Assembly: GCF_032854445.1 (NCBI RefSeq)
Contig: NC_088295.1
Span: 49,277,385-49,341,384, forward strand
DNA: 64,000 nt
Origin: Liolophura sinensis
Lineage: Eukaryota > Mollusca > Polyplacophora > Chitonida > Chitonidae
Reading direction: 5' to 3'
Below, in pieces: positions 7,130 through 57,600 of this stretch. Numbering within the stretch: the first letter of the stretch is position 1; the number at the start of each line of letters is the position of its first letter. The notes under the pieces were generated by a model. It made no database searches and had not been told where the DNA came from. It saw only the letters and a program-made list of their open reading frames with translations. The translations under genes and the position numbers were made by a program.

Positions 7130-8320
7130 TTTGTGAGAAGTTGAGTGGCTGCCTAATGGATGGTGTTGTCTGTATTAATGATAGTTGGGGGTTAAGTGCC
7201 TACAGGATGGCGTGATAGCCAGTGGTTGAGTGCCTACTGGATCGCGTTGTCTGTTTTGCTTAGAGCCAAGGCTTGAGTGTCTACATGATGGCGTGGTCTG
7301 TTTTGTTGATAATCATGGGATGAGTGACAGCCTACTGGATGGTGTCTTATGTTTTTATGATAGCCAGAGGTTGCGTGCCTACTGGATGGCGTTGTTTGTT
7401 TTGATGATAGCAAGAGGTTGAGTGCCTATTGGATAGCGTGGTCTGTTTTGTTGAGAGCCAAGGGTTAAGTGTCTATAGGATGGCGTTGTCTGTTTTGTTG
7501 ACAGCCAGGGGGTGAGTGACAGCCTATTGGATGGTGTGGTCTGTTTTGATGATAGTCAAAGGTTGAGTGCCTACTGGATGGTGTGGTCTGTTTTAATGAT
7601 AGAGGTTAAGTGCCTATAGGATGGCATGGTTTGTTTTGTAGGCAGCCAGAAGATGAGTAACAGCCTACTGGATGGCATTGTCTGTTTTGTAGGCAGCCAG
7701 AAGATGAGTAACAGCCTATTGGATGGCGTTGTCTGTTTTGTAGGCAGATAGAATTGGGGTAACTGCCTACTGGATGGCGTTGCCTGTTTTGTAGGCAGCC
7801 AGAGGATGAGTAACAGTCTATTGGATGGCGTTGTCTGTTTTGTAGGCAGCCAGAAGATGAGTAACAGCCTATTGGATGGCGTTGCCTGTTTTGTAGGCAG
7901 CCAGAGGATGAGTAACTGCCTATTGGATGGCGTTGTTTGTTTTGTAGGCAGCCAGAAGACGAGTAACTGCCTATTGGATGGCGTTGCCTGTTTTGTAGGC
8001 AGCCAGAGGATGAGTAACAGCCTATTGGATGGCGTTGTCTGTTTTGTAGGCAGCCAGAAGATGAGTAACTGCCTACTGAATGGCGTTGTCTGTTTTGTAG
8101 GCAGCCAGAGGATGAGTAACAGCCTACTGGATGGCATTGTTTGTTTTGTAGGCAGCCAGAAGATGAGTAACTGCCTATTGGATGACGTTGCCTGTTTTGT
8201 AGGCAGCCAGAGCATGAGTAACAGCCTATTGGATGGCGTTGTTTGTTTTGTTGGCAGCCAGAGGATGAGTAACAGCCTATTGGATGGCGTTGTTTGTTTT
8301 GTTGGCAGCCTACTACATTG
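7130..8320. repeat. 51-bp minisatellite
   Basis: About 23 tandem copies, degenerate from 7130 to 7620 and well conserved from 7640 to 8300. The unit contains GTAGGCAGCCAGA(A/G)GATGAG and TGGATGGCGTTG. Because 51 is divisible by 3, long frames stay open on both strands. These are periodic artefacts, not genes. Confidence 0.95.
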
Positions 8321-15469: not shown

Positions 15470-18400
15470 CTAAGAGAATAAAAAAGAACAAAAAGGAAAA
15501 GAATCACAAAGGTAAACAATCTAGCACACTTACTGACACAAAATGAAGTTGATCATAAAACTTTCACTTTCAATTTTTTTTTAAAATAACGTTGTCTAAT
15601 TGCGCTGATAGGTTGTCTGATTACAACGCTGCGATGCCTGATCATGCTGCTAGGTTGTCTGAATACATTGATATGGTGTCTGATTATAATGCTACATTGT
15701 CTGATTCCACTGCTCAGTCTCATTACACTACTACTTTGTCTGATTATCCTGCTAGGATGTCTTATTACACGGCCAGTTGTCTGATTACACCATCACATCG
15801 TTTGTTCATACAGTTACGTTGTCTGATGATAATGCTACCTTAATTACAGTCGCACTATAATGCCACATTGTCTGATTACTCAGTCAAATAGTTTGATTAC
15901 ACCGTCACACAGACAATGTGACTGTTTAATCAAATGTGATGATTACACATTCACACAGACAATGTGACTGTTTAATCAAATGTAATGGTTACACTGTCAC
16001 ATTGTCTGATTACACTGTCACTCTGTCACATTGTCTGATTACAGTGTCAAATTGTCTGATTATACTGTGACATTGTCTGATTACACTGTCACACTGTCTG
16101 ATTCTACTGACAATTTGTCTGATTATACTGACTCTTTGTCTGATTATACTGACACTTTGTCTGATTATATTGACACTTTGATTATACTGACACGTTGTCT
16201 GATTATACTGTCACATGGTCACACTGTCTGATTGCACTGTCACACTGTTACATTGCCTGATTATACTGACACTTTGATTATACTGACACATTGTCTGATT
16301 ATACTGTCACATTGCCTGATTATACTGACACTTTGTCTGATTATACTGACACATTGTATGATTATATTGTCACATTGCCTGATTATACTGACACTTTGTC
16401 TGATTATACTGACACATTGTCTGATTATATTGTCACATTGCCTGATTATACTGACACTTTGTCTGATTATACTGACACATTGTCTGATTACACTGTCGCA
16501 TTGCCTGATTATACTGACACTTTGTCTGATTATACTGACACTTTGTGTGATTATACTGACATTTTGTGTGATTTGTTTACAAAGCCATTTGCAGCGTAAT
16601 CAATGTGACAATATAATCAGACAATGTTTCAGTATAATCAGACAATGTGACAGTGTAATCAGACAATGTTTCAGTATAATCATACAATGTGACCTTTGTG
16701 TGATTATACTGACACTTTTTCTGATTATATTGTCACTTTGTCTGATTATACAGTCACATTGTCTGATTATACTGACACTTTGTCTGATTACACTGTCACA
16801 CTGTCTGATTACACTGAAACATTGTCTGATTATACTGACACTTTGTCTGATTACACTGTCACACTGTCTGATTACACTGAAACAATGTCTGATTATACTG
16901 ACACATTGTCTGATTATACTGACACATTGTCTGATTATACTGACACTTTGTGTGATTATACTGACACTTTGTCTGATTATACTGACACTCTGACTGATTA
17001 TACTGTCACTTTGTCTGATTACACTGTCACATTGTCTGATTATATTGAAACATTGTCTGATTATACTGACACTTTCTCTGATTACACTGACACAGTCTGA
17101 TTATACTGTCACATTGTCTGATTACACTGTCACATTGTATGATTATACTAAAACATTGTCTGATTACACTGTCACATTGTCTGATTATACTGAAACATTG
17201 TCTGATTATATTGTCACATTGATTACGCTGCAAATGGCTTTGTAAACAAATCACACAAAGTGTCAGTATAATCACACAAAGTGTCAGTATAATCAGGCAA
17301 TGTGACAGTATAATCAGACAATGTGTCAGTATAATCAGACAAAGTGTCAGTATAATCAGGCAATGTAACAGTGTGACAGTGCAATCAGACAGTGTGACCA
17401 TGTGACAGTATAATCAGACAACGTGTCAGTATAATCAGACAAAGTGTCAGTATAGTCAGACAGGCCTGATATATGTGTACTAGTATATCAGGCAGTTAGA
17501 CTTACCTTCGCTTGACAAAAAGGCAAAGGAGGACGACAACGACAACAAGGATGAAGACACCAGCAATAACAGGGCCGATAATAATAGCATCTGCAATAAG
17601 AAGAATCACTCTCTTTGTCTTATGGAAATTTAAATACTCCACATGTCTCCATTAAATGTATATCCAATGGCGAAAATGACAAAATGTTAAACGAACACAG
17701 AAGCTCTGAAAACCTTGAAAATTTTGAATAGCTGGTCCCTCCATACATCTTAAACTGCTCATTGTGACACCTCGTTAATCCACAGGCTTACAACGGCTAT
17801 GAAAATAGTACTTGATAACGTATGTCAAAAGCTTAAGGCTAATATAACAATACTCAGATCTATATTGAAATGCCTATAACTAGATCAGGAGAACCTGGTT
17901 TCCGTCCACCATAATGCTGGCCGCCGTTGTATAAGTAAAATAGTCTTAGGTACGGCGTAAAACACCAATCAAATAAATAAATAAGATAAGGAGAAATGCA
18001 TATAGGCTACTCTCAGACTGCCATTTGATGGTTCAATGGTGTTCATGCTTCCTTATTTTAAAATGAATCCATGAGTCGCAAAAAGCATTCGTATATCAGC
18101 CGTCAACAGAAATTAATGTTCCAGATCAATAACCGCAAGGTCAATTACCAAAACGACGTATATACACGAACCACCGCAGAACTAAGAAAGTATGTGAAGA
18201 ACGAAACTAGGACGGAATCAAGCAAATAAAAGCTTAGCAGTCAGCAGTTTACAAGGACGTTTGAAAGATGCTAGGTTTGTTCCAGACGAATCAGTATTAC
18301 ATCGTGTACCATACTGGTACATAAGTTGTCGATAATAAAATAGTTGCGCTTTGATGGCAAGTCATCATATACCCAACGTGGGGCGATCTAGTTCAACTCG

Positions 18401-28324: not shown

Positions 28325-28990
28325 CCGACGTTGTGCATGAGGAGTCCGATGTTGTGCATGAGGATTTAGATGTTGTGCATGAGGAGTCACATGATGTGCA
28401 TGAGGAGTCACATGTTGTGCACGAGGAGTCATGTTGTGCATGAGGAGTCACATGTTGTGCATGAGGAGTCATGCTCTACATGACGAGTCGCATGTTCTGC
28501 ATGATGTGCACATGTACGAAGAGTCAGATGTTGCACATGAGGCGTCAAATGTTGTACAAGATGGTCAGATGTTGTCTGTGAGGGTAAGATGTTATATGCA
28601 AGTCGGATGTATGCGAGGTCAGATGTTGTATATAAGAGTCAGGTGCATGTAAAGGTGAGATGATGTTTGTAAGTGTGAGATGTTCTATGTAAAGAGAACA
28701 CAAGATGTACGTAAGGGTGAGATGTACGTAAGGGTGAGATGTATGTAAGGGTAAGATGTTGTATGTAAGGGTAAGATGTATGTAAGGGTGACATGTATGT
28801 GAGGTGACATGTTGCATGTGAGGGTTAGATGTAAAGAATGGTCAGATGTTGTATGCAAGAGCCAGATGTAGTATGAGAGGGTCAGATGTTGTGTGAGAGA
28901 GTCAGATGTATCAGAGTCAGATGTTGTATGACAGTCAAATGTTGTATGTGAGCATCAGATGTTGTATGCAAGAGTCAGATGTTGTTCATG
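28325..28990. repeat. Roughly 21-bp minisatellite, degenerate
   Basis: Units like GTTGTGCATGAGGAGTCACA are regular at 28330-28490. They decay to irregular GTCAGATGTTGTATG and GTAAGGGTGAGATGT forms by 28990. Lies just 3' of the SPRY gene and may fall in a long 3' UTR. Confidence 0.9.
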
Positions 28991-29055: not shown

Positions 29056-29061
29056 TTTAAT
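29056..29061 (-). terminator. Candidate poly(A) signal of the SPRY gene
   Basis: ATTAAA on the minus strand, about 115 nt past the stop codon. Positional inference only. Confidence 0.3.
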
Positions 29062-29175
29062 GATTATGACAAGTTGTGTATGAAAAGCTAATTTCCTTTC
29101 AATCAGTTCTTCCCAGCATTTTTACCTTTACAACCTGATTTTTCTTTCTAATCCATACATTTTGCCACTGATGCC

Positions 29176-29720
29176 TTACAATATGACACAGCTTTTGGAT
29201 TGGTACTGGTCAGCTATTGCCTCCTCATCATACAGGTGCTGACCGGATGCCTTCAGCTTCTTCTCGGAACTTTTACCAACGCTGTGTTTCTTCTTAGATT
29301 TCTTCTCCTTCTTCTCAGGTTTGTCCTTGTATTTCTTGTTGCTGCCTGGACTGTCCAACCATCGAGAGGAGCCCTTCCCACGAGATGTCATCCCTTCATC
29401 ATCTGACAAGCCCAGGCTGTTCAAGCTGTATGAAGTGGCATTCAGTTGTTTGCGGGGATCACTGACAGGATCTTTACCCAGAGGGCCCTTCCCTAGGGCC
29501 TGATTCCTGTCCATACCTGGCTGCTTTCCCATGGGAAGATCCCTGCTGATGCCCGGACCCTGGCTGATCACACTGCCCTTTGATGGCCCATACAGCTTAG
29601 CGGACTCCTCCTCTTCCTCAAGATTCTTCTCAGCATCCTCAATCAGTTGCTGCACCTCCTCCGAGGATAGAGGGTCTTCCTCAATACAACAGGCTGCGAA
29701 CTCAAACTTCACTCTGGCCA
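29176..29720 (-). CDS. SPRY gene exon 15: end of domain B2, Lys-rich tail, CAAX
   Basis: Acceptor CTGTTTCTTTCAG. It enters at phase 1, closing the last SPRY strand (ARVKFEFAACC), then runs an acidic segment, a Gly/Pro-rich segment and a KEKKSKKKH run to KSCVIL and TAA at 29176-29178. Confidence 0.9.
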
Positions 29721-32700
29721 CTGAAAGAAACAGATAACATGCTTTAATAAAACTCTGGAAACAAATCGGTCATTTGATCCTTGAGAAGTCTTCTGTAATA
29801 GAATATTCATCACACTGTATTTATGTGTGTGACCTTTTTCCATGGACCATGCTAATGCATCTGCATGTACGTGCACTCATCTGACAGTTTTTTGCGAATT
29901 GGAATTATTCAAATAATTTGGATAATTCCAATGCATGTCCCGTGTGTAATACCCTGGATAGGCTTTACTGCTGAGGTCGACTGTTTTGTTTACATGTATC
30001 TGATATGTGTTTTCAAGAATATTTCACCTTAATGACAGACATGATCTTATAGGAATGTAGATTTTCAGACATCCAGGTTAGTATACCATAAAAGATAACA
30101 CTATAAAACTGTTCTACTGGACAATGTACATTATTTACTGATGTTGCGGCCACAACCTAACGCCTTCAACAGAGTAAGGTGTCAAACAAAAAGAATTCCT
30201 ATTTATATTGAAGTTTTAAACATGAGAAAAAGGAGAAGAAATCTAAGAAGAAACACAGCGTTGGTAAAAGTTCAGAGAAGAAGCTGAAGGCATCCGGTCA
30301 GCACCTGTATGACGAGAAGGCAATAGCTGACCAGTACCAGTCCAAAAGCTGTGTCATATTGTAAGGCATCAGTGGCAAAATGTATGGATTAAAAAGAAAA
30401 ATTAGGTTGTAAAGGTAAAAATGCTAGAAGTTATAACTTCCATATAAATAGGAATTCTGTTTGTTTAACACCTTACTCTGTTGAAGGCGATAGGTTGTCG
30501 CCGCAAGGTCAGTAAATAATATACATTGTCCAGTAGAACAGTTTTATAGTGTTATCTTTTATAGACACCATCTTAGTTTCCAAACAAACCTTAAAACACT
30601 TTCTAAAATCAAAAAAAAATACCAGAATCAGACAGAATCATGAGCCAAATTTTGGCTCATTTTATACTGGAGTTGCCAGTCAGTCTACGGCATAATTAAG
30701 TCTACTCACCTCCTGGGGGTAAAATAACCACAGGATAAAATCCACCAGGTGGCAGCACTAAGACCCGTCGTAAAACCACAGTCCGGTTTAGTGTCAGGTA
30801 ACAGATGACTAGATCCTCCCTGCGTCTTGTCCTTGAAGAGTTGTGTTTAGGAAAGATAATTCCCCAGCCGATAAAATCCCCTTGTTGCACAGAAGATGCC
30901 GCTGCAAGAGTTAGCAAGTTAGAAGTGAATTGTTAAGAACTAAGACAACTAAGAGCTTACTGCATGCACTTTTAGTTACTCCCAGCTCTGCCTGGTTTCT
31001 TCCACCATAAACAAAACTACAATGCTCAATCAAAATATACCTGCCAAGGCAAAGTGAAATATATCAACACACAATCCTGCACACAACATCTCCTTTCATA
31101 AATTCTTTAAGTGAAGCAGTTCTTCAAATACATGTGGGGTATATCAGTCACAAAAAGGGGCATAATTCAGTAAATTTAAATTGCTTTCACTAGACTTCTG
31201 CTCTGGTTGGAGAGACAAAACGTGAACAAATTTTTACAAACGTACGGACGGATCGAACGGACAGAAAGACGGAGTGAACTGACAATGCCATGCCATAATA
31301 AATAAGCTGCATAAAATCGGATACATTTTGATCAACATATACATGTACAAGAGTGTACTAGTACTATATACCTTTTCCTGTCGCCCAAAACCTGATGAAG
31401 TCCTGGGTGTAATGACTGCTAAGTGGAGGATCTCTGGGTGATGCGGCGCAGAGTGCGATCACAGGAGGGGGAGAGCAGTCATCAAACGCATCCACTAGCT
31501 GGATTTCATAGTGGTTAAACTCTGCAAGAGAAACAACACCCCGTGAACAACTTCATAGATACTCTTACAGCCCATATTACACCTAATACATCTGTACCTT
31601 ATTTATTTGATTGGTGTTTTACGCCGTACTCAAGAATATTTCTCTTATACGATGGCGGCCAGCATTATGGTGGAAGGAAACCGAGCACAGCCCGGGGGAA
31701 ACCCACAACCATCCACAGGCTGCTGGAGATCTTCCCACTTACGACCGGAGAGAAAGCCAGCATGACCTGGACTTGAACTCACTGCAACCGCATTGGTGAG
31801 AGGCTCCTGGGTCATTACGCTGCGCTAGCACACTAACGGAGCCACAGAGGCCCCCATCTGTACCTTATCACATGTATGTACACATACATGGGATATATGG
31901 TTCAATCTTCCACAGGCTGGATTCAACTCTGCATGAAAAACAACACCGATTGGGAAACATAATAGTGGTTCTTACAGCCTATAAGACACCTAATGCATGT
32001 GTATCCAGTGTGTCTGATCTATTGAACATACATGGGATATGCGGTTTAGACGGAGAAATGTGCTACATCACTGGTCCAGATATTTGTATGGAGTAGTTTG
32101 ACTAAACCCATAACTTTGTGATTATTTTGGCAGTAGCCCACATGATACATCACAAGCTTTCTGGAATAACCATTCCCAGCCTTGATCGCGGGCCAAATGC
32201 AAACAGGCAAGAAAAAACAAGGTGATTGTTCAGTTTTTAAACAAATTTACTGCACAGTCAAGTTGTTAATAAATGAACCCAGTATGTTCTAGCAGCATTA
32301 TAACTAAGCAAATGTGACTTCGGGCACACTTCGGGCACTTGGCGCTAAAGCACTGACATGTATGTTTTTTTGTTTTTTTTGATTGGTGTTTTATGCTGTA
32401 CTCAAGAATATTTCACTTATACGACGGCGGCCAGCATTATGGTGGGTGGAAACCGGGCAGAGCCCGGTAGGGGGAACCCACGACCATCCGCAGGTTGCTC
32501 ACAGACCTTCCCACTTACGGCCGGAGAGGAAGCCAGCGTGAGCTAGTCTTGAACTCACAGCGACCGCATTGGTGAGAGGCTTCTGGGTCACTACGCTGTG
32601 CTAGCGCACTAACCGACTGAGCCACGGAGGCCCCGACATGTATGTCACAGTACATATAAATATATGTACTGTATATATAGACAGGCAAGTCTTGCAAGCT

Positions 32701-35700: not shown

Positions 35701-38700
35701 TCCTGGATAAATCACATGAACGGCTAAAAGATTATGACTGATACATACATTCACAGACTGACAGACTGACAGAGATTTAGGAGTTACAATTCTCAGAAGA
35801 ATGTCAGCTACAGACTGTGCCTGTAATTCACTCTACTTTGTACAGCGAATCAGAGTTTGTACAATTTAAAACATAAAAATTCACATTTTCAAAGCCACTT
35901 GGAATAAATACTTCAAGGTAATAAACCCTAAAGCAATGTAAAACATCCTCATTAGTTGAATTTTTGCATATACATGTACACAGCACTGCATCAACCAAGT
36001 TTAAACATGGAGGAAAATAAATTTCTCCAAGAGAATGTCAGCATAGTGTAAAGACTACGTCAGGTTGGTATCCTCAACAAGCCACTATTAGCGCAACCAA
36101 ATGTATTTGATTTTTTTAATTTTTTATGTATTTAAAGGGATGTCAGATTTTTCTTTCTGTAGACATGGTAATGAAACAAAGATTATGATTGGTGCCATTA
36201 CTGATGTTTGACCTCTCCATTCACAGAGGGCTGGCCAGTGACCTCTAGCTGACCTCTACCACAGAGCCTACCTCAGGCTTTCAGTATTCCACCACCATTA
36301 TACCTACCCTCGACTGGTGCACACCTTTACGACAGTGGTCTACCGATACGGTTGGCCACACTTCTATTTAGCTACCACCAGTGTACACATCCCCATCCCC
36401 CACTCACCCCCCCCCCCCACAAAGTCCAAACGATGGCATATCAGCCAGCACCAAATTGACAGGAAATTTTAGCCTGAAATGAACTGCTGCATATTACATC
36501 TAACACCTGATTAATTCACACATGTAGCAATGGACATACAACCATACACCTTGCACAAAAGCTTGCCCTTACGTTTGTTGACAGCATCAGTCTCCAGCAT
36601 ATCACGAATGTCTGCCAGCAGATCCCTGTAAATCTTGTCAAGTTCCTTCAGTAAACCCGCCTCTACTGTCTTCCCATTCTCAACCTTAATCTTTGATGCT
36701 GGCATAGGAAGAACAAAGACCGAAAATTTTAAAATGCATTGAAATTTAGTAAACATGAATAGTAAAGAATCATTTGAAAACAACCTTCCCAATTTCCTCC
36801 ATTATGCTGACTTATATTCAGTTTGTATGTATATATGGGTGGTCTCCATTGCCTGTGAAGAGCAGTACATCCTGCAGAGCATAGCAGAAATGCATAACCA
36901 TCCATAGGTTGCTGCCAGATGACCAGAGAGAAAAATAAATTTAGGAAGAGTGAAAATCTTCAAGGTCAGAATAATATGTGGCAGGTGTTAATAAATGATG
37001 ATATACATTACAGGTAAAAACATTGGGTCAAAAAAAAGACAAACTATGTGGTACCATTTTGACTGAGCAGCACCATGGGGTAAAAGCCACCTGTTGGCTG
37101 AAGCATCATCTGGAAGCACTGCATCACCCTGTTCTTCACCACATAACACAGGACTATCTGCTCAGCCCTGGGGTCAAAGTCAGGTCTGTCCCTGCGCTCA
37201 GGGGAGTAATGGACACCCCAGCCTATGTGATCTCCAGTCTTCACACTGTTGGCTGAAACAATAAGGAATTGAATCATACTGTTATTAACAAGAATGCAGG
37301 TGTCCAAAATACCTTTTGACTACTTGTTTATTTGTGAAAAAGCATCATTATGGTAAGAACCTGAAGGCAGTAATTTTGTAAATGTGGAACTTATTATCAG
37401 GAAAAATTAAGAAGGAACAAGGTGAGGTCATTCAAAAGATGCATACAAAAAATACATGACACTGTGCAGACAAAATCTCATGTGAACTTCTTTGCACTTC
37501 GACTAGGGTGACTTCATAAACATTGCAATAAATGGCATGAAAATTATGCATGCACAAGTTTTCATCATGGGGAAAGAGGACAACGGACAGAAGGACAGTA
37601 ATGCTAGTATATCTTCTTCTCACCCCTCCTAACTTGGAGGGGTTGCAGGATGTATAATAACTTATGTAAATTCGCCAAACATACATGTACCCAAATCAAA
37701 TAAGGCGTGCACTATTAAATATAGCTTACCTCCCAGCTTATTAAGAAAGACTTATTTTATCTATTCATTTTAATGCCACACTGATCAGTTTCTGTAGCTA
37801 CAAAGTGAAGCTCTATGACAGGATTTCTTGACACTGATAAACAAGTCACTTACTGGGTTCCCACTTTAGATAGTCTCTCAGCAAAACACATGGAGGTGTT
37901 GGCTTCAGTGGACTGACAGTTGCTATGGCAACTGTTGGCCCCACCCCTTCTGCTGTGCACTCCTCCACTTTTACATCATAAAATGGTAAATCTGTGACAA
38001 ATAGTAAGTGGCACTATAAGAGCAATTTATAACCACTTCTTTCTGGTCATTGAACTGAGATATTCAATACAATATTTGCAAATAACAGACTGGATCAATA
38101 TTCCACCATTAAAAATGAATTACTGCTCTTAATTTTCTTCAGACTTTACTTTGATCACCTATGTTTCAAGTAGCTAGTCCTCACCCTAGTCATTCCAGAT
38201 ACCACACCCAGTCCTGCGAGATACCATGCCCAGTCATACCAGTTCACCCACCCAGTCACACCAGGTACACACCCAGTCATAAATGTACTAGGTGCCCACC
38301 CAGTCATATTAGGTGCCCATCCACTCATACCTGTGTGCCACCCAGTCATACCGGATACCCACCCAGTCATACCAGTCCCACCCAGTCATACCAGTTCACA
38401 AACCCGGTCATACCTGATTCCCATCTAACAACACCAGATGCTCATTTAGCCATACCAGTCCCACCCAGTCATACCAGAGACCCACCCAGTCATACCAGTT
38501 CACAAACCTAGTCATAGCAGGTGCCCACCCAGTCATACCAGGTGCCCACCCAATCATATCAGGTGCCCACCCAGTCATACCAGGTGCCCACCCAGTCATA
38601 CCAGTGCCATCGCAGTCATACCTGATACACACCCAGTCATACCCGATACCCACCCAGTCATACCAGTCCCACCCTGTCATACCAGTTCACAAACCCGGTC

Positions 38701-41700
38701 AAACCTGATTCCCATTTAACCATACCAGATGCTCACTTAGTCATACCAGTCCCACCCAGTCATACCAGATGACCACCCAATCATACCCGATGCCCACCTT
38801 ATTATACCCGAGGCCCACCCAGTCATACCAGGTGTCCACCCAGTCATACATGATGCCATCCCAGTCATACCAGATGTCCACCCAGACACACCTGATGCCC
38901 ACCTAATCATAACAGATGCCCCCACAGTCATACCAGATTCCCACCCAGTCATACCAGTTCACCCACCCAGTCATACCGGATGGCCATCGTCATACCAGAG
39001 TCCATCATCTAACATCATAAACCCTGAGCTGGTCAGCCCTTCCTTACACCATCCTAACTCACACTATGACAGAGATCTAACAGTCCTGTGTCAGACAGTT
39101 TCAGCTACTACAGACCTGGTCCCAGAGAGACTGTCCCCTGAAGAAAACCCTCTACATCTTTGTCCTTGGCACACATGAAGATGTTTTCATTTTGGTCAAA
39201 TTTAGTTGCTGGTGAGCGGATCCAGTGTGAAACGTCGGTCTGCAAAAGTGTTTGTTTATTCATTTATTTGCTTACATATTAAATATATAATTACAGGTCA
39301 GCTTCCCTGGTTTAAGAAAGTGGTTAGAACTCCAGACCAGATCTTGCCAGATAACTCACAGATTTCTTGATGTACTACACAGCAACCATCACCAGAAATG
39401 AAGACACAGTTTTCACCTAATAAATTGCAGTTTGTATAAAATGACATTTGCAAGCAGTGATTTGTACTAAATGTGTGAAGACTTACTGACATACAACATA
39501 CAACTTCATAAGGAGACACAACACGAATAGACTTCAGCAGTTTACATATTTAGGGGGGGAGAATTATCTTTGAAAAGCAAATATTACAGCTGTTTGCAAG
39601 CCATTTAAATTTTAAAAAATGTTACAAGCATTTTTTTTTATACAGTCCTGCAACTTTTGCAGCTGTTTGCAAACCCTTTTAATTTTCCAAAAACTGTTAC
39701 AAGCATTTTTTCTATACAGACCTGTGTTATAGGTTGTTTCTCCACAGCAGGTACCAGCCAGATCACCTCCAACTCTATTGGTCCTTTCTCCAGAAAGAGA
39801 CAGGGGAAATATTGACTGTGGTCTGTTTCAAACAGATACCTGCAGAAACGACATACCAACTCATAAATGAGATTATAAACTGATACTTCATTTTTGTTGT
39901 ATCATATTATTACACCTCATAACTGATGTTTCCTTTGTTTGCTTGGGTTTATTAATGAACAAATGCTTTTCAAAATTATTTATTAACATGTCATGACTGG
40001 ACGACTGTGGATTCCTCCCGCTATAATGCTGGCCACCGTCATATAAGTGAAATATTCTTCAGTATGGTGGAAACGCACAAATCAAATATATAATTAAACA
40101 AATTAACATGTTATGACGAGAGTACATGTAATTTCAGTGTAAGACCAGTCTAAATGTTGAAAAACATATTTTTAAGCAAACATCAGCACATTGGAGGTAT
40201 CATCTGAAGAAAACTGGGAGAGGACTTTCACTAGCCATTTGATGAGAGGTGTGTCATGGAATTCCCCATAATTACTGCTAATATGTGAAAATTTAAGTCA
40301 GAACAACATCAGTACTAAGTATGACTGTTCTCTGTCAAATATTCAGTATTATCCAATCACGAGAGGACACATATTCACTGCTCCTACTGTGACTAAATGC
40401 TGGTAGCTGGATCCCACCAATGCTATCTTGGTGAGCATAATGTCATTATTTTTGTGTCAAAAAAATGTCAGCTTTCCGACACAATGTGTCAACGAATATT
40501 AGGGATGAAGTTTTTGAAGGGTGTTCCTTTACTGGAAGATTGTGAAACTATCAAGGCTATACAAGCCACTTACACCAACTGTAGTTTATGGAATATAACA
40601 CAAGCTTAAAAGTTACACGCCACTGATATACATGTACTGTACATACCGGGTAGCAACAGGAAGGCCATTTTTGTAGAAAAAAATAGTTGATGACTTTTTC
40701 CCAAAGTATGACACCTCGACTGAGAGCTTGTCACCTAAGAAAAACAAAACACAAGTTTAATCTTTTGATCATTAAACCAAAACATGTATTAAGGTACGGC
40801 TTGAGACTTTGGGCATATAAAAGAAGGCCTGTATGTGAACGCCGTGCACTTTCCAACGATACAGACTGTTCAGCATGACATTAAGAACAGCTATACAGCA
40901 TGCAACTCATTGTCTGAATTGAAAGTATGCCAGCTCAAACAAAAAAAACCATCTTCCAATTATAGAGATAACCTTCTATGCAATTTCTAATATTACTTTC
41001 TCACCTTAAGTTTGGCATTTCTAAACTCACACACTTTATTTGATTCTGACCGATTCTTAGACCTTATAGCACAACTGAACATTTTTTTTTTGGGGGGGGG
41101 GACTAATTTCTTGTCAAAAACTGTTAACTTATGGCATTAAAGGTATACTTTTATAGCCTATATGTAATTTTGAAAGTGGATTTTTAAATAACAAAATTTA
41201 GGTCAAATACAGTTATTTGTGCCTGTATTTCAATTCATACAAATATTGAAAACACAAAAATAAATTTAGTTTTTGTCACACTTTAATAGAGCCAAGACAA
41301 ATCACCCAGTCATACTGGTGAATGACCCTTTGCATACATTGCTGCTGTACATTTCATCTGGATTCACGCACAGATTTAAAACTCTTTGGTCACTTTCAGA
41401 AAACTAGAAAATTTGATGTAACTTTGATGAAAAAAGTTATGAAATTTTTAGGAAAATTAGGAAGCTTTGTGAAAGTGGCCTCAGTATACAGAAACCAGGA
41501 AGAATTTGCAAAGATTTAATTCTGCATATAGATCTTACCTTGACCAATCACTTCTCCTCCTGTGTTAGCTGTTGAATCATGGGAACTGTAGCACCTGCCC
41601 GTGTTGCTATGGTAACCGACTGTGTTATTCCAATGTCCTGGGGCCCTGTTTTCCTCTATAGCACTTCCAGCGATGCCTGCAACTATTTTGCTTTCAGGAC

Positions 41701-43083: not shown

Positions 43084-43265
43084 GTTTATTTATTTATTCG
43101 ATTGGTGTTTTACGCCATACTCAAGAATATTTCACTTATACGACGACGGCCAGCATTATGATGGGAGGAAACCAAACAGTGCCCAGGAGAAACACGTGAT
43201 CATCCACAGGTTGCTGAAGACCTTCTCACATACAGCCGAAGTGGAAGCCAGCAAGACTACATGAT
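43084..43265 (-). mobile_element. SINE family A, head missing
   Basis: GATTGGTGTTTTACGCCATA, CTCAAGAATATTTCACTTAT, GCCAGCATTATGATGGGAGG in reverse. Confidence 0.88.
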
Positions 43266-43295
43266 GTAAGCTGGGTCTATTATATAGGTGAATCC

Positions 43296-43377
43296 TCTCA
43301 CAGTAATACTGGCCACAGTAGTATAAGTGAAATATTCTTGAGCATGGTATAAAACACCAATCAAATAAATAAATATT
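43296..43377 (+). mobile_element. SINE family A, 3' end only, opposite to its neighbour
   Basis: GTATAAGTGAAATATTCTTG and AAACACCAATCAAATAAATA. With 43084-43265 it forms a head-to-head inverted pair about 30 bp apart. Confidence 0.85.
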
Positions 43378-44238
43378 ATATAGATAAAGGGATATGCACA
43401 AGACTACTCCTCTTCCAGTCTCGTTCTGGACTGATTTAAATTTAACGCAAACTTTCTGATTCAAAACTTGTGACCTTTTGACTGACAATTCCTACCAGAC
43501 CATTTATACAACACTGAGAAGAGAATTTAAAAAGTAAACAAAGAATGGAAAAAAGACTTAATAAAAGGGCAAGCCATGTGTGGTGACACCGATACTTAAT
43601 GCTGACCTGCATGCATGTGTACATTACATGTACTTGAAGTATTGCCAGAAAATAGTGTATTTACAGTGTAATATCATAACAATTAGTAACATGGTTACAA
43701 ATGTGCTGAGTAACATACATGTACACGTAAATGCATCATGTTTGCAGAAGAAAAAAAAGATGTCTATTATACATGTAAGTTTACCAATAATAAAAAAAAG
43801 GTTACTAAAACTGGACCAACATTCATAAATGTGCCATTCAATTCAGGATAGAATAAAAAAAAAATCCATGACCGACTTACCTATTGCCTATGAGTTTTGT
43901 TGCTCCGTTCCCGGTAAGGTCCAATAGTACGGCATGCAAAATTAGCTATATAGGCCTTCCGCATGCAATGGCATCAGATTCTTGGAAACACCAGTACAGT
44001 TATGTCAATACAGAGTTTAGCATTAATGTTTGTCTACTGAAAGAGAGATTGTTGTGCATGGGTTGAACCACAAAAGCTGACCACATGCCATGCAGGGACG
44101 AGACCCGTCACGCACAGATGAAGCTACACCGTTACAAAGTGTAATGTGTTCAGACCAGGCCGTTATGAATGAAGACAAGTTTGGGCGCGTGTCTGGCTGG
44201 GGTCGGAATTGTTGACCGTATTTCAGCCCACATCTCAC

Positions 44239-46559: not shown

Positions 46560-48037
46560 GGGTTTCACGAATATGGATGTTTTTTTATGTAAGTTAATAG
46601 GGCCTACTGGATAACTGTATGGCTGTAAGATACTTGAAGCCTTGATCTGGGTTAAACAAGGTAACAAGTGTCCAGTTAGTCCACATAATTACATCATACA
46701 TGTAGCAATAATTATTTATTTGTAACAGTGTATGTACCAAATTTGCCACAGTTAACATTACTGCAATATATAATCATCCTTAAAACAATTAACATAGTTG
46801 CTTTATACATAAGGAATAGCTGGAAGATTGGTTAAGGATTCATGCAGTTTTAATAATGAGTCCTGAGTGGGATAACTGTAACATTGTACAACATCTGAAC
46901 AGCTAACAGTGGCAACTTAACTGTTATGCTACCTTAATGAAAATGTTTGGAACTGTTAAAAGCTGTACCAGTATACAGTAAAGAAATGCAGAATTGATAA
47001 AATGCCAGAACCATTGGAATGCTAACTTTAACTTTTCAGCCTCCACTGTCAGAGACTAAGCAGTTAACTACACTGCAACTTTATCAACATTTCTGGTGTA
47101 CTCAGCCAATGAATGTATTTCCTAGACTGGAAAAAGTAAGAAATCAACAAACTGCTTCGGCACACCTAAAAATGATAAACATTTTATTGAAAGTTTAATG
47201 AGAATTTAATGAACCACGAAAGTCATGGATGACAAAAAAAAATTTGGAACAAAAACAGAAATTTTTTCAAATAGTGTACAATTTATCTACATACATGTAT
47301 ACTGTCTTAACAACATGCTTGAAACTTTATTATTATTGCTTATTTGACAACAAAAACAAAATGTCAGGTTAGATTAACATGTACCAAGAAAAGTTTTTCT
47401 CCCCCACACATCAATGTTTTGATATTTATCTTAAAATCCAGAAGAGAGTGATGATCAGTATTCATGCTTTTTATTCCTGGTTTTTTTTTAATGTGAAAGT
47501 GACAATAACCAACACTAGCCACCATTACGCCAAAACCTTGTATATTTTAGTATTTTCATGGATATGATTTTTGCTTTACATTCATTGTACTTACGAATAC
47601 ACAACCTACCGTATAGTATGAGAACACTGGGAACAGAATTGAAAAAACCACCATATCTGGTACATGTAGGTCCCTGACTTTCAGAAAAGGCAGTTTGAAG
47701 ACAATTTATACACATGGATACCTTAAAACTTATTTATTATTTTAATTATATGTACATTTTCCTTTATTTCTTAACTTTGTTAGGTAATATTCAATTTTGA
47801 GAGTAGAAGATTACGACAATGCAGCCTGAGTGAATTCTCTTTGAGCCAGCACATCACTGTTTTATGCCACAACAGGGTTTACTTAGCTACATGTATCTTT
47901 TAACACAGAGGTTCATGTATCTATGTAAAACTGTTGGCAGAATTCCAATATTTTTGCACCTGGCAACATAGGGACACTGAAGAACATAATGATTATCTAA
48001 GGTTGCTTTTCAATGATTGTATGTACCAACCTATGTG
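46560..48037. other. No gene recognised; 3' flank of PDXK
   Basis: AT-rich. A minus-strand AATAAA at 47733-47738 is a possible but distant poly(A) signal for PDXK. Confidence 0.4.
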
Positions 48038-48047
48038 AAATTTGATG

Positions 48048-48207
48048 CGGCCGTATGTGGTAAGGTCTGTTCGCAACCTGAAGATGGTCGTTGGTTTCTG
48101 CCGGGCTCTGCCCGGTTTCCTCCCACCATAATGTTGGCCGACGTCGTATAAGTGAAATATTCTTGAGTACGGCATAAAACACCAATCAAATAAATAAATA
48201 AATAAAT
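48048..48207 (+). mobile_element. SINE family A, 5'-truncated, with 10-bp target duplication
   Basis: AAATTTGATG at 48038-48047 is repeated at 48208-48217. Body and (AAAT)n tail well conserved. Confidence 0.92.
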
Positions 48208-48486
48208 AAATTTGATGAATTGACCCTACTCTGTTGTGATGTCAAGCCACAAAGAGACATCACATTGCTGACGTATACTGAAAGTCATGTAGTGACAAAA
48301 TTTTAGAGGTGTAATGTTCACAGTTGATCCACCAAATATAATCACTTAATTGAAATTCTCATTCTAAAAATAAATCAACCTACACATGATATGCTTTTTA
48401 GTGGTCTAAAATTTCAGAGGGGTAAAAGGGTATAATAAAAATTTGTAAATCTCAAAACAATTATTAGTCTAACATTATGCTATGTG

Positions 48487-51600: not shown

Positions 51601-54600
51601 TGACAAATTCCATGACTTTCCAGGTCATATTCATATAGAATTCCATAGAATTTCCAAGACTTTCATTGCCAGTTCACTGATCATTAGCACAGCCAAATTC
51701 CTTTCCACTTTTTATTTGATATTTGACCACTTAGCCAGTTGTCAATAGTTTGTGGTGCTATCATGCAAATATCAACATCAACAATAAATTAAAATCTTGC
51801 TCCACTTAAATATCAAGAGCTTGAAACATAAAACAAGCAGACTAGACAGTTTGGCAAGTTGTTTGTCATTTTTATCAATTTTTAGGATTTCCAAAGAAAT
51901 TCAATGCCGAAGGCCTGAAAATGTTATTTTCATATCCCATTACTTTCAAAAGTTTTGCAGCACTGCCTGAACCCTGACACTCACATTTATGCATGGGGGA
52001 AACCAGACAGAGCCAAGAAAACATTTATCTACTTATCTGATACTATACAGCATGATTAAATAACTACACAGTTATTACAATACCAAATACTTCAACATGG
52101 ATGATAATCAGAGGTTGTTCCATTTATAACCTCCTTTGATGCATAATGGCTGGTAACTTTTTGCATAATTTCTTTTTTATCAAACCTTTGCTTTATCAAA
52201 AGCCCATGAATAAATGTTTTCTTCACAACCTGTTCTGATTTCTTACTTAATAGTACTTGTTTATTTACTCTATATTATACCTATTTATTTTACCTATTTA
52301 ATCTTTAATCAGTGACAGCAGAGAAAAATATCACCTTTAGTCAGGTGCCTGACAAACTTCCAAACATAAAACCAGAGCTGGGATCATGCAACAGCTGGGA
52401 TCATGCCAGAGCAGGGATCATGCCAGAACTGGGATCATGCAAGAGCTGGGAGCATGCCAGAGCTGGGATCATGCAAGAGCTGGGATCATGCAAGCCTGCC
52501 ACTTCAGTGGTCAGGATCAAATAGCTGCAGTAAGAGCTGTACAATGCTTTAGCTGAACGTGTCAGCAAAAGTACCTTGGCTTGTTTCAGGTTTATATTAA
52601 AAGTTTTCTAATGTGCAATGTTGCTGGACAGCTTCAAAATAAAGGTTCTAACATGGCTGTGATAATCAGTTCAACTCACTCTGCCTCAAACTGATTGGGT
52701 GTGACAATGTCTGCCAGGGGCACCACTTTATCTCTGTACACTGGTAACATCTCAGGCTTTACGTACTGCAGAGCAAAACAAAGAGTGTCATACAGTTCAG
52801 GTCATGAAATTTCTTAAAAGATACATGAAAACGTACTAAAAAACAAAGAGTTTGGTTTTAGCCAAGAAGAAGAAAGAGACGCTCCAAAAAATGAAAAAAA
52901 AATCATTTCTTTTCATTTATACACCATATAGATGAACATTCAGGGAGTGCTGTACTGGCTTAGAGCCCTTAGTTGGGCTCTTTCCCCCAACAAAGTTTTT
53001 TTGACAGCTATCACCATTCATGTCACTACAGCAGCCAGGCTACTTAATGTCTGGCCTTAGAAATGTGGGGCCTTAGAAAAACTGTAGTTTTTTTTGTACT
53101 TTATATTGTATATGAAAAGTGCAATCTTCTTGTGGCATTCATTACAATGAAACACTGAACTTCTGAACATAAAACTGAATGGAACAGCCATATAGATATA
53201 GAAGAAAGATATGCCATATTTCACCTAAGTTAAGCCTCTCACAAGAGACATACTTCTGTTGATCCTGACTGATTCATTCACCTTATAGTGCCACTTAAAA
53301 AGTTTTTGTGAACTTTGATTAATTTCCAATCAGAAAAACCTGTGTTGGCATAAAAACTATAATTTTAAGGTCTAATCTATGTGCCTCTGGAAGTGAATTT
53401 TTACATACCAAACCTGAGGTGAAATACAATATGTTTTTTTACTCTACCAAACCTTACGTGAAATACACTATGTTTTATTGCTCTACCAAACCTGAGGTGA
53501 AATACACAATGTTTTATTACTCTACCAAACCTTAGGTGAAATACACTATGTTTCATCACTCTACCAAACCTTAGGTGAAATACACTATGTTTTATTACTC
53601 TACCAAACCTGAGGTGAAATACACTATGTTTTATTACTCTACCAAACCTTACGTGAAATACACTATGTTTTATTACTCTACCAAACCTGAGGTGAAATAC
53701 ACTATGTTTTATTACTCTACCAAACCTTAGGTGAAATACACTATGTCTTATTACTCTACCAAACCTGAGGTGAAATACACTATGTTTTATTACTCTACCA
53801 AACCTGAGGTGAAATACACCATGTTTTATTACTCTACCAAACCTTACGTGAAATACACTATGTTTTATTACTCTACCAAACCTGAGGTGAAATACACTAT
53901 GTTTTATTACTCTACCAAACCTGAGGTGAAATACACTATGTTTTATTACTCTACCAAACCTTACGTGAAATACACTATGTTTTATTACTCTACCAAACCT
54001 GAGGTGAAATACACTATGTTTTATTACTCTACCAAACCTTACGTGAAATACACTATGTCTTATTACTCTACCAAACCTGAGGTGAAATACACTATGTTTT
54101 ATTACTCTACCAAACCTGAGGTGAAATACACCATGTTTTATTACTCTACCAAACCTGAGGTGAAATACACTATGTTTTATTACTTTACCAAACCTTAGGT
54201 GAAATACACTATGTTTTATTACTCTACCAAACCTGAGGTGAAATACACTATGTTTTATTACTCTACCAAACCTGAGGTGAAATATACTATGTTTTATTAC
54301 TCTACCAAACCTTAGGTGAAATACACTATGTTTTATTACTCTACCAAACCTTACGTGAAATACACTATGTTTTATTACTCTACCAAATCTGAGGTGAAAT
54401 ACACTATGTTTTATTACTCTACCAAACCTTACGTGAAATACACTATGTCTTATTACTCTACCAAACCTGAGGTGAAATACACTATGTTTTATTACTCTAC
54501 CAAACCTGAGGTGAAATACACCATGTTTTATTACTCTACCAAACCTGAGGTGAAATACACTATGTTTTATTACTCTACCAAACCTTACGTGAAATACACT

Positions 54601-57600
54601 ATGTCTTATTACTCTACCAAACCTGAGGTGAAATACACTATGTTTTATTACTCTACAAAACCTTAGGTGAAATACACTATGTTTTATTACTCTACCAAAC
54701 CTTACGTGAAATACACTATGTTTCATCACTCTACCAAACCTTAGGTGAAATACACTATGTTTTATTACTCTACTAAACCTTAGGTGAAATACACTATGTT
54801 TTATTACTCTACCAAACCTGAGGTAAAATACACTATGTTTTATTACTCTACCAAACCTGAGGTGAAATACACTATGTTTTATTACTCCACCAAACCTTAC
54901 GTGAAATACACTATGTCTTATTACTCTACCAAACCTGAGGTGAAATACAATATGTTTTATTACTCTACCAAACCTTACGTGAAATACACTATGTTTTATT
55001 ACTCTGCCAAACCTTATGTGAAATACACTATGTTTTATTACTCTACCAAACCTTAGGTGAAATACACTATGTTTTATTACTCTACCAAACCTGAGGTGAA
55101 ATACACTATGTTTTATTACTCTACCAAATCTGAGGTGAAATACACTATGTCTTATTACTCTACCAAACCTGAGGTGAAATACACTATGTTTTATTACTCT
55201 ACCAAACCTGAGGTGAAATACACTATGTTTTATTACTCTACCAAACCTTAGGTGAAATACACTATGTTTTATTACTCTGCCAAACCTTAGGTGAAATACA
55301 CTATGTCTTATTACTCTGCCAAACCTTATGTGAAATACACTATGTCTTATTACTCTACCAAATCTGAGGTGAAATACACTATGTTTTATTACTCCACCAA
55401 ACCTGAGGTGAAATACACTATGTTTTATTACTCTACCAAACCTTAGGTGAAATACACTATGTTTTATTACTCTACCAAACCTTAGGTGAAATACACTATG
55501 TTTCATCACTCTACCAAACCTTAGGTGAAATACACTATGTTTTATTACTCTACTAAACCTTACGTGAAATACACTGTTTTATTACTCTACCAAACCTGAG
55601 GTGAAATACACTATGTTTTATTACTCTACCAAACCTTACGTGAAATACACTATGTTTTATTACTCTACCAAACCTGAGGTGAAATACACTATGTCTTATT
55701 ACTCTACCAAACCTGAGGTGAAATATACTATGTTTTATTACTCTACCAAACCTTACGTGAAATACACTATGTTTTATTACTCTACCAAACCTGAGGTGAA
55801 ATACACTATGTTTTATTACTCTACCAAACCTTAGGTGAAATACACTATGTCTTATTACTCTACCAAACCTGAGGTGAAAAACACTATGTTTTATTACTCT
55901 ACCAAACCTTAGGTGAAATACACTATGTTTTATTACTCTGCCAAACCTTAGGTGAAATACACTATGTCTTATTACTCTGCCAAACCTTATGTGAAATACA
56001 CTATGTCTTATTACTCTACCAAATCTGAGGTGAAATACACTATGTCTTATTACTCTACCAAACCTGAGGTGAAATACACTATGTCTTATTACTCTACCAA
56101 ACCTTACGTGAAATACACTATGTTTTATTACTCTACTAAACCTTAGGTGAAATACACTATGTTTTATTACTCTACCAAACCTTACGTGAAATACACTATG
56201 TTTTATTACTCTACCAAACCTTACGTGAAATACACTATGTTTTATTACTCTACCAAACCTGAGGTGAAACACACTATGTTTTATTACTCTACCAAACCTT
56301 AGGTGAAATACACTAGGTTTTATTACTCTACCAAACCTTAGGTGAAATACACTATGTCTTATTACTCTACTAAACCTTAGGTGAAATACACTATGTTTTA
56401 TTACTCTACCAAACCTTACGTGAAATACACTATGTTTTATTACTCTACCAAACCTGAGGTGAAATACACTATGTTTTATTACTCTACCAAACCTGAGGTG
56501 AAATACACTATGTTTTATTACTCTACCAAACCTGAGGTGAAATACACTATGTTTTATTACTCTACCAAACCTTACGTGAAACACACTATGTCTTATTACT
56601 CTACCAAACCTGAGGTGAAATACACTATGTTTTATTACTCTACCAAACCTGAGGTGAAATACACTATGCTTCATTACTCTACTCTTCACACCAAAACATA
56701 GGACTTCCTAAGCTGACTCTGCCTTGACAACAAAAACAAGCCGTCATAAACTGTTTACTTTATATTGACTGTTTGAGGTTTTGGAAGTGGTAACATTTCA
56801 AGTACAGTTTTCCAGCAGAAAATAGAGGATTGCACATTAAATTCCTTGAATAATCAATACAGAAGTAACAAAAGATCTTACTAGTTTTCCATTGTCTCCC
56901 ATAACAGGGTCACATGCTGAAAGTGAAGAAGAAAAAAGCAGAAATACTGAATAATCAAAATCAACAAACAATAACAAACATGAGATGTAGAAATGTACAC
57001 TAAGCACCATCTTAACTGAATGGATCGGCAAGGGTTCCAACTTTCTTACATATTTTTTATTGCAGTTATTTGAGGAAAGCTACAAGGTCTAATCCCCATT
57101 TTTCTACTAAAATAAACCACATACATACATGTACATATACCAGTAGTTCCTCTGCCTCTTTAAAAAACCAATTTGTAAAATCTTACCAAATATCAGGTTT
57201 GGATTATGTTTCCGCAAGTCCAACACAATTTCACTGACTTTCTCTAGGAATGAACTGGAGCCAATGTATCCTGATAAAAGCAAAAGGATATAATCAGACT
57301 GAATTTGAAATATTGAGATGAGAAGCAACTGTTCTTTGAATTACTGCATGGACCTGACACACAGCCTTTCTTCAAATATTCAAAGATTGAGCATGCAGTG
57401 AAGTCACACCTCTGATGGCATCACGACTTCTTTGACAACTGACTTTAGGAAATCATCTACAACAGTATTTTTTATATTATTTTAAATATTACCAATGAAG
57501 GGCTGTCCCTGAAGAATAATATTTAACAATCAATTACTGATTACTTTTTCAATCAGAAGTGTGTCCATATATCTGTAAACATTAATACACATAAAATGGA

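What the first reader, a model, noticed from the sequence alone, without database searches (positions are those of the whole stretch)
30088..30565. Foldback element whose entire centre is a captured copy of the neighbouring gene's last exon
Two inverted arms of about 125 bp enclose 209 bp that match, at about 96% by eye, the last 46 codons, stop and 3' flank of the SPRY gene exon ending at 29176. The copy is on the opposite strand 0.9 kb away, inside that gene's final region between exons 15 and 14. The copied part preserves the CAAX box. Transcripts of the host intron would contain an antisense copy of the gene's own 3' end, able to pair with it. Pack-type TIR elements are known mainly from plants; a clean animal case next to its donor would be notable.
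Basis: partly seen in the sequence, partly recalled or inferred. Interest (0 to 1): 0.78.

Follow-up and report, generated by a model that had tools for sequence, protein, structure and literature searches.

The report
Penelope-type insert holding neighbouring exon copy
An old retroelement insertion in a gene's last intron carries, at its centre, a mirror-image copy of the end of that same gene, most likely made by a polymerase that switched templates locally; the structure is real and curious, but it belongs to a retroelement class already known to pick up host DNA.

Summary
In detail: two inverted arms (30088-30219 / 30431-30562, 93%) enclose a 208-bp inverted copy (96%) of 29115-29322, the end of a neighbouring gene's last exon. 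The reading as a Pack-type TIR/foldback DNA transposon is not supported. The arms are 3' ends of a Penelope-like retroelement (PLE): other copies carry RT and GIY-YIG-type fragments between or beside the same arms, one end bears an extra ~38-nt 'tail', and 22 of 29 two-ended copies show target-site duplications above chance; in the window 30037-30049 / 30563-30575, 11 of 13. Inverted ends, one-sided tail, short TSDs and captured host DNA are all published for Penelope elements (PMC3846280). The capture is unique: donor and copy are the only two matches found in the assembly, and 3 of 29 two-ended copies have a centre the family does not match (this one; a 42-bp unknown; a probable decayed arm). 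Near-equal arms, a 14-bp palindrome at one junction and a repeated dyad sequence suggest a local out-and-back template switch at the centre of a palindromic insert, at or soon after insertion. The pre-mRNA is predicted to form 204 intron-exon base pairs across the last splice acceptor; no effect is shown.

The parts
30037..30049 (.). left target-site duplication AGACATGATCTTA
   Evidence: 11 of 13 match the right copy; 0.74% of 812 mismatched left/right flank pairs score as high
30050..30087 (-). 'tail': ~38-nt extension beyond the left arm, present at one end only of family members
   Evidence: left and right ends side by side; 53 copies of the tail/arm boundary, 0 in the reversed control
30088..30215 (-). 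left arm: antisense copy of the 3'-terminal ~128 nt of the Penelope-like element
   Evidence: the same arm lies ~200 bp downstream of an RT/GIY-YIG-type frame in L068
30210..30221 (+). left copy of the dyad sequence (GAAGTTTTAAAC; right copy GAAGTTATAAC at 30427-30437)
   Evidence: read; most other family arms continue GAAGTTACATAC or a close variant
30218..30425 (+). captured copy of the host gene's last-exon end, sense strand on +
   Evidence: 200 of 208 identical to 29322-29115
30427..30440 (.). 14-bp perfect palindrome GAAGTTATAACTTC at the right junction
30434..30562 (+). right arm: sense copy of the element's 3' end (inverted relative to the left arm)
30563..30575 (.). right target-site duplication AGACACCATCTTA
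29115..29322 (-). donor: last 147 coding nt with stop, and 61 nt of 3' flank, of the host gene
   Evidence: no other match than the capture
29176..29720 (-). last exon of the host gene (weakly SPRY-like protein ending CVIL), coding part
   Evidence: ORF; acceptor TTTCTTTCAG|TGGCC read; SPRY sub-threshold
29721..30709 (-). last intron, which holds the whole insertion (from splice consensus only, no transcript)
   Evidence: read: donor CAGGAG|GTGAGT and acceptor

Best explanation
A Penelope-like retroelement inserted into the last intron of the gene as two head-to-head copies of its 3' end (~128 nt each, one with the tail), flanked by a 13-bp TSD. Shown: family relation, one-sided tail, TSD, uniqueness and nearness of the capture. 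Inferred: the two ends first abutted as a palindrome with the dyad GAAGTTA|TAACTTC. A DNA polymerase completing, repairing or replicating that palindrome left its template at the dyad, copied 208 nt from the opposite strand 0.9 kb away (the same gene's last exon), and returned to the dyad, leaving a second copy of ~11 nt of it. This happened at or soon after insertion. The result is a pre-mRNA whose last intron can pair with the end of its own last exon; whether that matters to the gene is untested.
For: Family: fragments with RT and GIY-YIG-type sequence lie between the arms (Pfam GIY-YIG E = 2.2e-4 at 21.9 of 22.6 bits in L005, RVT_1 0.018 in L024), and beside arms at many loci. In L068 one open frame with both parts is followed ~200 bp later by the arm; its two parts align with a 664-aa frame, L067 (30%, E = 1e-13, and 39%, E = 5e-18), which has RVT_1 above cut-off (3.8e-8). 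TSDs: 22 of 29 two-ended copies above the 95% null, window included. Local capture: only two matches found, 895 bp apart. Dyad: 14-bp palindrome at the right junction; both inner arm ends read GAAGTT-(T/A)TAA-(A)C where most other arms read GAAGTTACATAC; family match stops 128 (left) and 129 (right) nt from the tips. Timing: arms differ at 8 of 128, copy and donor at 8 of 208, so similar ages are not rejected.
Against: 208 nt is long for a small template switch: the great-ape survey reports a median of 12 and a maximum of 128 (PMC7954356, passages). Microhomology at the switch points is at most 3-4 nt and imperfect. No zero-centre palindromic relative with this dyad was found (0 matches within 3 mismatches). 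Near-equal arm ends also occur in copies without an exon capture (L055 81/81, L016 191/191, L036 120/125). The alignment ran the left arm on to 152 with gaps. The age comparison rests on 8 changes each, and the arms may already have differed at insertion. Pfam did not name GIY-YIG in L067 or L068.
Confidence: 0.55

Rival explanations
1. Insertion-coupled capture by the element's reverse transcriptase: while the two cDNA ends were being made at the target, one jumped from element RNA to a transcript of the gene being entered (nascent or spliced), copied 208 nt, and was joined to the other end.
For: Penelope elements are reported to carry captured host sequence between terminal repeats inside TSDs, and self-priming and template jumps were proposed for them (PMC3846280). 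TSD and both ends are intact around the capture. Ages fit. The captured piece lies within one exon, so an RNA template is possible.
Against: The piece stops at 29115, short of the only AATAAA/ATTAAA found in the flank, at 29061, so it does not look like an mRNA 3' end. The palindrome and repeated dyad need extra steps. Only 1 to 3 of 29 two-ended copies have a non-family centre.
Confidence: 0.27
2. Pack-type or foldback DNA transposon with long terminal inverted repeats that captured an exon.
For: Long inverted arms with a host-derived centre.
Against: One-sided tail; arm lengths vary freely between copies; centres of relatives are RT/GIY-YIG-type remnants; the arm sits downstream of an RT-type frame; no mobilised copy of the captured centre found.
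Confidence: 0.04
3. Nested second insertion: a fragment of the gene's transcript was inserted by the PLE machinery into the dyad of a palindromic copy, the ~11-bp duplication being its own TSD.
For: The repeated dyad (~11 nt) is in the size range of the family's TSDs.
Against: No transcript 3' end at 29115; no element sequence on the inserted piece; landing within 1 kb of the donor by chance is very unlikely in 609 Mb (inference).
Confidence: 0.06
4. Assembly artefact (one haplotype folded onto another).
For: Inverted repeats are hard to assemble; no reads were available here.
Against: Arms belong to a dispersed family with TSDs; the insertion has its own TSD; copy and donor differ at 8 of 208 and arms at 8 of 128, more than expected of a folding error.
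Confidence: 0.03

Closest known systems
Penelope-like elements (PLEs) with GIY-YIG endonuclease and inverted pLTRs, e.g. Pen2a_Av of Adineta vaga (PMC3846280, passages)
   Same: RT plus GIY-YIG-type remnants; inverted terminal copies; an optional short tail (31 bp there, ~38 nt here) at one end; short TSD (8-10 bp in the examples there, matched stretches mostly 9-17 here); palindromes at inverted junctions.
   Different: Here many copies are short head-to-head pairs of 3' ends; no full-length element of this family was examined and a direct upstream pLTR was not tested.
Penelope-mediated capture of host sequence: NRPS gene between Pen3a pLTRs, and other unrelated sequences between solo pLTRs with TSDs (PMC3846280, passages)
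   Same: Host DNA lies between Penelope ends inside a TSD without element coding sequence.
   Different: Here the donor is 0.9 kb away in the same gene, inverted, 208 bp of one exon, at the dyad of the pair; there a whole intron-containing gene was copied to a new place.
Local template switching / MMBIR templated insertions (PMC7954356 passages; PMC8421209 search listing only)
   Same: Nearby, inverted, templated insertion at a palindrome-prone site.
   Different: Longer than the events in the great-ape survey, and placed in the centre of a retroelement.
Pack-MULEs / Pack-TIR elements of plants (recalled, from no call)
   Same: Inverted ends around a host-gene fragment.
   Different: DNA transposons with fixed ends; the two of their features tested here are not met.

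Membership tests
Penelope-like element, EN-containing | Reverse transcriptase | tested here: met
   In relatives, not in the window copy. L067 (664-aa relative) RVT_1 E = 3.8e-8, above cut-off; the RT part of family member L068 aligns with it at 30%, E = 1e-13. Direct Pfam hits in the family are below cut-off (0.018; 0.013).
Penelope-like element, EN-containing | C-terminal GIY-YIG endonuclease in the same frame as RT | tested here: inconclusive
   L005 fragment GIY-YIG E = 2.2e-4, 0.7 bit below cut-off; L068 has RT-type and this C-terminal part in one open frame and the part aligns with the C-terminus of L067 at 39%, but Pfam names GIY-YIG in neither L067 nor L068 nor in L017 or L024.
Penelope-like element, EN-containing | Inverted terminal copies with optional tail at one end | tested here: met
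Penelope-like element, EN-containing | Short target-site duplication | tested here: met
   22 of 29 two-ended copies (20 of 26 if the duplicated cluster L043/44/45/57 counts once); window copy 11 of 13
Penelope-like element, EN-containing | Direct pLTR / partial tandem arrangement | not tested
   no full-length copy was examined
Penelope-like element, EN-containing | Hammerhead ribozyme motif in the pLTR (recalled for some PLEs, from no call) | tested here: not met
   no hammerhead among 8 matches in 10 loci (E up to 5), window copy L001 included; recalled as present in many but not all PLEs, so not treated as defining
Pack-type TIR DNA transposon | TIRs of one length at both ends, no one-sided extension | tested here: not met
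Pack-type TIR DNA transposon | Captured fragment mobilised with the element | tested here: not met
   only donor and this copy found in the assembly
Helentron / HINE (considered early) | No TSD (recalled); relatives with Rep/helicase | tested here: not met
   TSDs and RT-type relatives; Rep/helicase itself was not searched for

The most novel reading that the evidence does not exclude
While inserting into a gene, a Penelope-type element copied a piece of that gene's own nascent transcript into its centre, writing into the last intron a sequence that pairs with the gene's own last exon; the resulting cis-duplex spans the last splice acceptor and may modulate terminal splicing, editing or small-RNA output of the gene.
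Probability: 0.15. Interest if true: 0.65.

Novelty: new variant of a known kind. Interest (0 to 1): 0.4.

Why it matters
It shows in one place a Penelope-type insertion in an intron-bearing host gene whose ends, tail and target-site duplication are all readable, with a centre whose source is known and next door. Such cases are snapshots of the still unsettled Penelope insertion cycle (palindromes, self-priming, template jumps), and they show how a retroelement can leave a gene with a self-complementary pre-mRNA without disturbing its coding sequence.

Tried and rejected
Helentron/HINE: my first idea from the one-sided extension (note); dropped when centres proved to hold RT and GIY-YIG-type fragments and TSDs appeared.

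Habit of the family to capture host DNA: not supported. Of 29 two-ended copies, three have a centre of at least 20 bp that fewer than two other loci match: the window copy (218 bp with junctions); L036 (42 bp, whose source was not found); and L047 (43 bp, by eye a decayed arm, not tested). The first, gapped, version of this test flagged only parts of these, and a 14-bp outer stretch of L028. Rows dropped before counts: L002-L004, which overlap other loci; in the column counts also six members of two duplicated clusters. Right tips of L046, L050 and L061 had 11 of 40 mismatches and L059 10, so those pairs are weaker; L043, L044, L045 and L057 look like one duplicated locus.

Zero-centre palindromic relative with the same dyad: none within 3 mismatches. 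Hammerhead: none. Gene identity: Pfam on single exon ORFs gave nothing or only a sub-threshold OxRdtase_C match (0.018 and 0.15); joined exon ORFs gave sub-threshold SPRY (0.034) and OxRdtase_C (0.054); solved structures gave two matches at E = 1 or worse and none for the element fragment. The RVT_1 genome search (150 of 3269 candidates scored) showed no use for this family. GIY-YIG was sought again in L067 and L068 without success.

Literature. In the titles and abstract starts listed I saw no report of a Penelope element holding an inverted copy of an adjacent exon; one search listed 10 of 1,144 papers, and the library is open-access papers only, so absence from print is not shown.

Full report
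OBSERVATION. The inverted arms (30088-30219 and 30431-30562, 132 nt, 93%) and the inverted copy of 29115-29322 at 30218-30425 (208 nt, 96%) are real. The copy is ungapped with 8 mismatches, covers the last 147 coding nt with the stop and 61 nt of 3' flank, and keeps the CVIL end. Donor and copy are the only two matches found in the 609-Mb assembly (one search agrees for the centre).

THE ARMS ARE A DISPERSED FAMILY. Searching with the element gave 106 matches, with 105 first-look candidates of which 40 were scored. I fetched 36 loci. The arm tip is closely similar in most, but one end carries an extra conserved block of about 38 nt outside the arm and the other end does not. A pattern over this tail/arm boundary, with up to 3 mismatches, found 53 places (33 forward, 20 reverse), and 0 for the reversed control. 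I fetched 26 further stretches. Of 63 stretches examined, 29 had both ends within reach (window copy included).

THE FAMILY IS PENELOPE-LIKE. Longer copies (L005, L017, L024 and others) hold broken frames with RT and GIY-YIG-type sequence. Of six fragments given to Pfam, one matched GIY-YIG (L005, E = 2.2e-4, 21.9 bits against a cut-off of 22.6), one RVT_1 weakly (L024, 0.018), four nothing. A genome search with the L017 fragment hit many of the same loci as the arms. In L068 one open frame holds both parts, and the arm lies in sense orientation ~200 bp downstream. Its two parts align with a more distant 664-aa frame, L067, at 30% (E = 1e-13) and 39% (E = 5e-18), and L067 has RVT_1 at 3.8e-8, above cut-off. 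Pfam names GIY-YIG in neither L067 nor L068, so the endonuclease label rests on L005 and on motifs read by eye. In L017 the left arm is followed by the reverse complement of the same C-terminal coding region that precedes the right arm. So the arms are two 3' ends with 3' termini outward and 5' sides meeting in the middle. Target-site duplications: 22 of 29 two-ended copies score above the 95th percentile of 812 mismatched flank pairs; 7 do not. The window copy has AGACATGATCTTA / AGACACCATCTTA, 11 of 13, a score reached by 0.74% of mismatched pairs. The insertion is therefore 30050-30562.

COMPARISON WITH PRINT. In the Adineta vaga paper (PMC3846280; abstract, passages and the Discussion were read), Penelope insertions have inverted pLTRs, a 31-bp tail optionally at one inverted pLTR, TSDs of 8-10 bp in the examples seen, palindromes at inverted junctions, and in some cases host sequence between the ends, including an intron-containing gene. 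PMC8969392 (passages) repeats inverted pLTRs and short 3' extensions as PLE traits. The present case fits this description.

WHAT IS SPECIAL HERE. The captured centre comes from the host gene itself, 895 bp away, inverted. Among 29 two-ended copies three have centres not matched by the family: this one (218 bp including junctions), L036 (42 bp, source not found) and L047 (43 bp, by eye a decayed arm). The family match stops at nearly the same place in both arms, 128 and 129 nt from the tips (in one search the left alignment ran on to 152 with gaps). One search measured 27 other copies (L017 was the ruler): in 23 the two ends differ by more than 5 nt; near-equal ends occur in L055, L016 and L036, and perhaps L051. 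The right junction is a perfect 14-bp palindrome, GAAGTTATAACTTC at 30427-30440; 19 of 63,800 centres in the window have one this long or longer. Most other arms continue GAAGTTACATAC or close to it, whereas both inner ends here read GAAGTT-(T/A)TAA-(A)C. I read this as a former head-to-head palindrome whose dyad was opened, with the exon copy placed between two copies of ~11 nt of the dyad. Possible microhomology is AAC or AAAC on the left and GAAG on the right, neither exact.

AGE. Left and right arms differ at 8 of the first 128 positions, and at each of these one arm has the commonest family letter. Copy and donor differ at 8 of 208: 6 coding (4 synonymous, 2 not) and 2 in the 3' flank. 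A Fisher test entered with 9 of 128 (one arm difference more than the 8 counted) against 8 of 208 gave p = 0.21. The capture could be as old as the insertion. The excess of synonymous changes suggests that part of the divergence arose in the constrained donor; the call printed P = 0.011 for 4 or more synonymous of 5, but there are 6 changed codons, so this is a hint only.

MECHANISM. Most likely a polymerase working on the palindromic insert switched to the opposite strand nearby and came back (0.55). A reverse-transcriptase jump onto a transcript of the gene during insertion is the main rival (0.27). The captured piece ends before the ATTAAA at 29061, which speaks against an mRNA 3' end. Which strand was copied does not decide, since either of the two growing ends could have jumped.

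CONSEQUENCE. Splice consensus places the insertion in the last intron, 29721-30709 (read; no transcripts). Folding the gene-strand RNA over 29105-30710 pairs 204 of 208 copied bases with the donor, MFE -692 kcal/mol against -541 to -552 in 4 runs with the centre shuffled (one search shows the same duplex over a shorter stretch). The acceptor lies in the loop. An effect on splicing, editing or small RNAs is possible and untested.

LIMITS. One assembly, no reads, no relatives, unnamed species. Copy counts are lower bounds. The host gene's SPRY label rests on a sub-threshold match of hand-joined frames (E = 0.034), with an unrelated family scoring about as well.

Noticed in passing
53406-56682: Large minisatellite: period 39, about 84 copies, 94% matches; open reading frames of 725 and 384 aa on the - strand run through it ([13 protein letters not shown] repeats).
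   Followed up: no
7213-8310, 16023-17462, 28330-28982, 38182-38977: Several other minisatellites, mostly of 20-60 bp units, one of them just downstream of the host gene's 3' end.
   Followed up: no
31559-31765, 32349-32546, 43159-43491, 47996-48241: Open frames with similar peptides (such as [22 protein letters not shown]), probably a dispersed repeat present several times in this window.
   Followed up: no
L036 1664-1729: A second family copy with near-equal arms (120/125) and a unique 42-bp centre of unknown origin: a possible second small capture.
   Followed up: partly
L009, L010, L039, L040 (contig C11); L043, L044, L045, L057 (contig C4): Family copies with near-identical flanks spaced about 16-38 kb apart: copies probably multiplied by local duplication, not by transposition.
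   Followed up: no
L067 291-2285: An open 664-aa frame with RVT_1 above cut-off, related to this family's proteins, with many equal-scoring matches elsewhere in the genome.
   Followed up: partly
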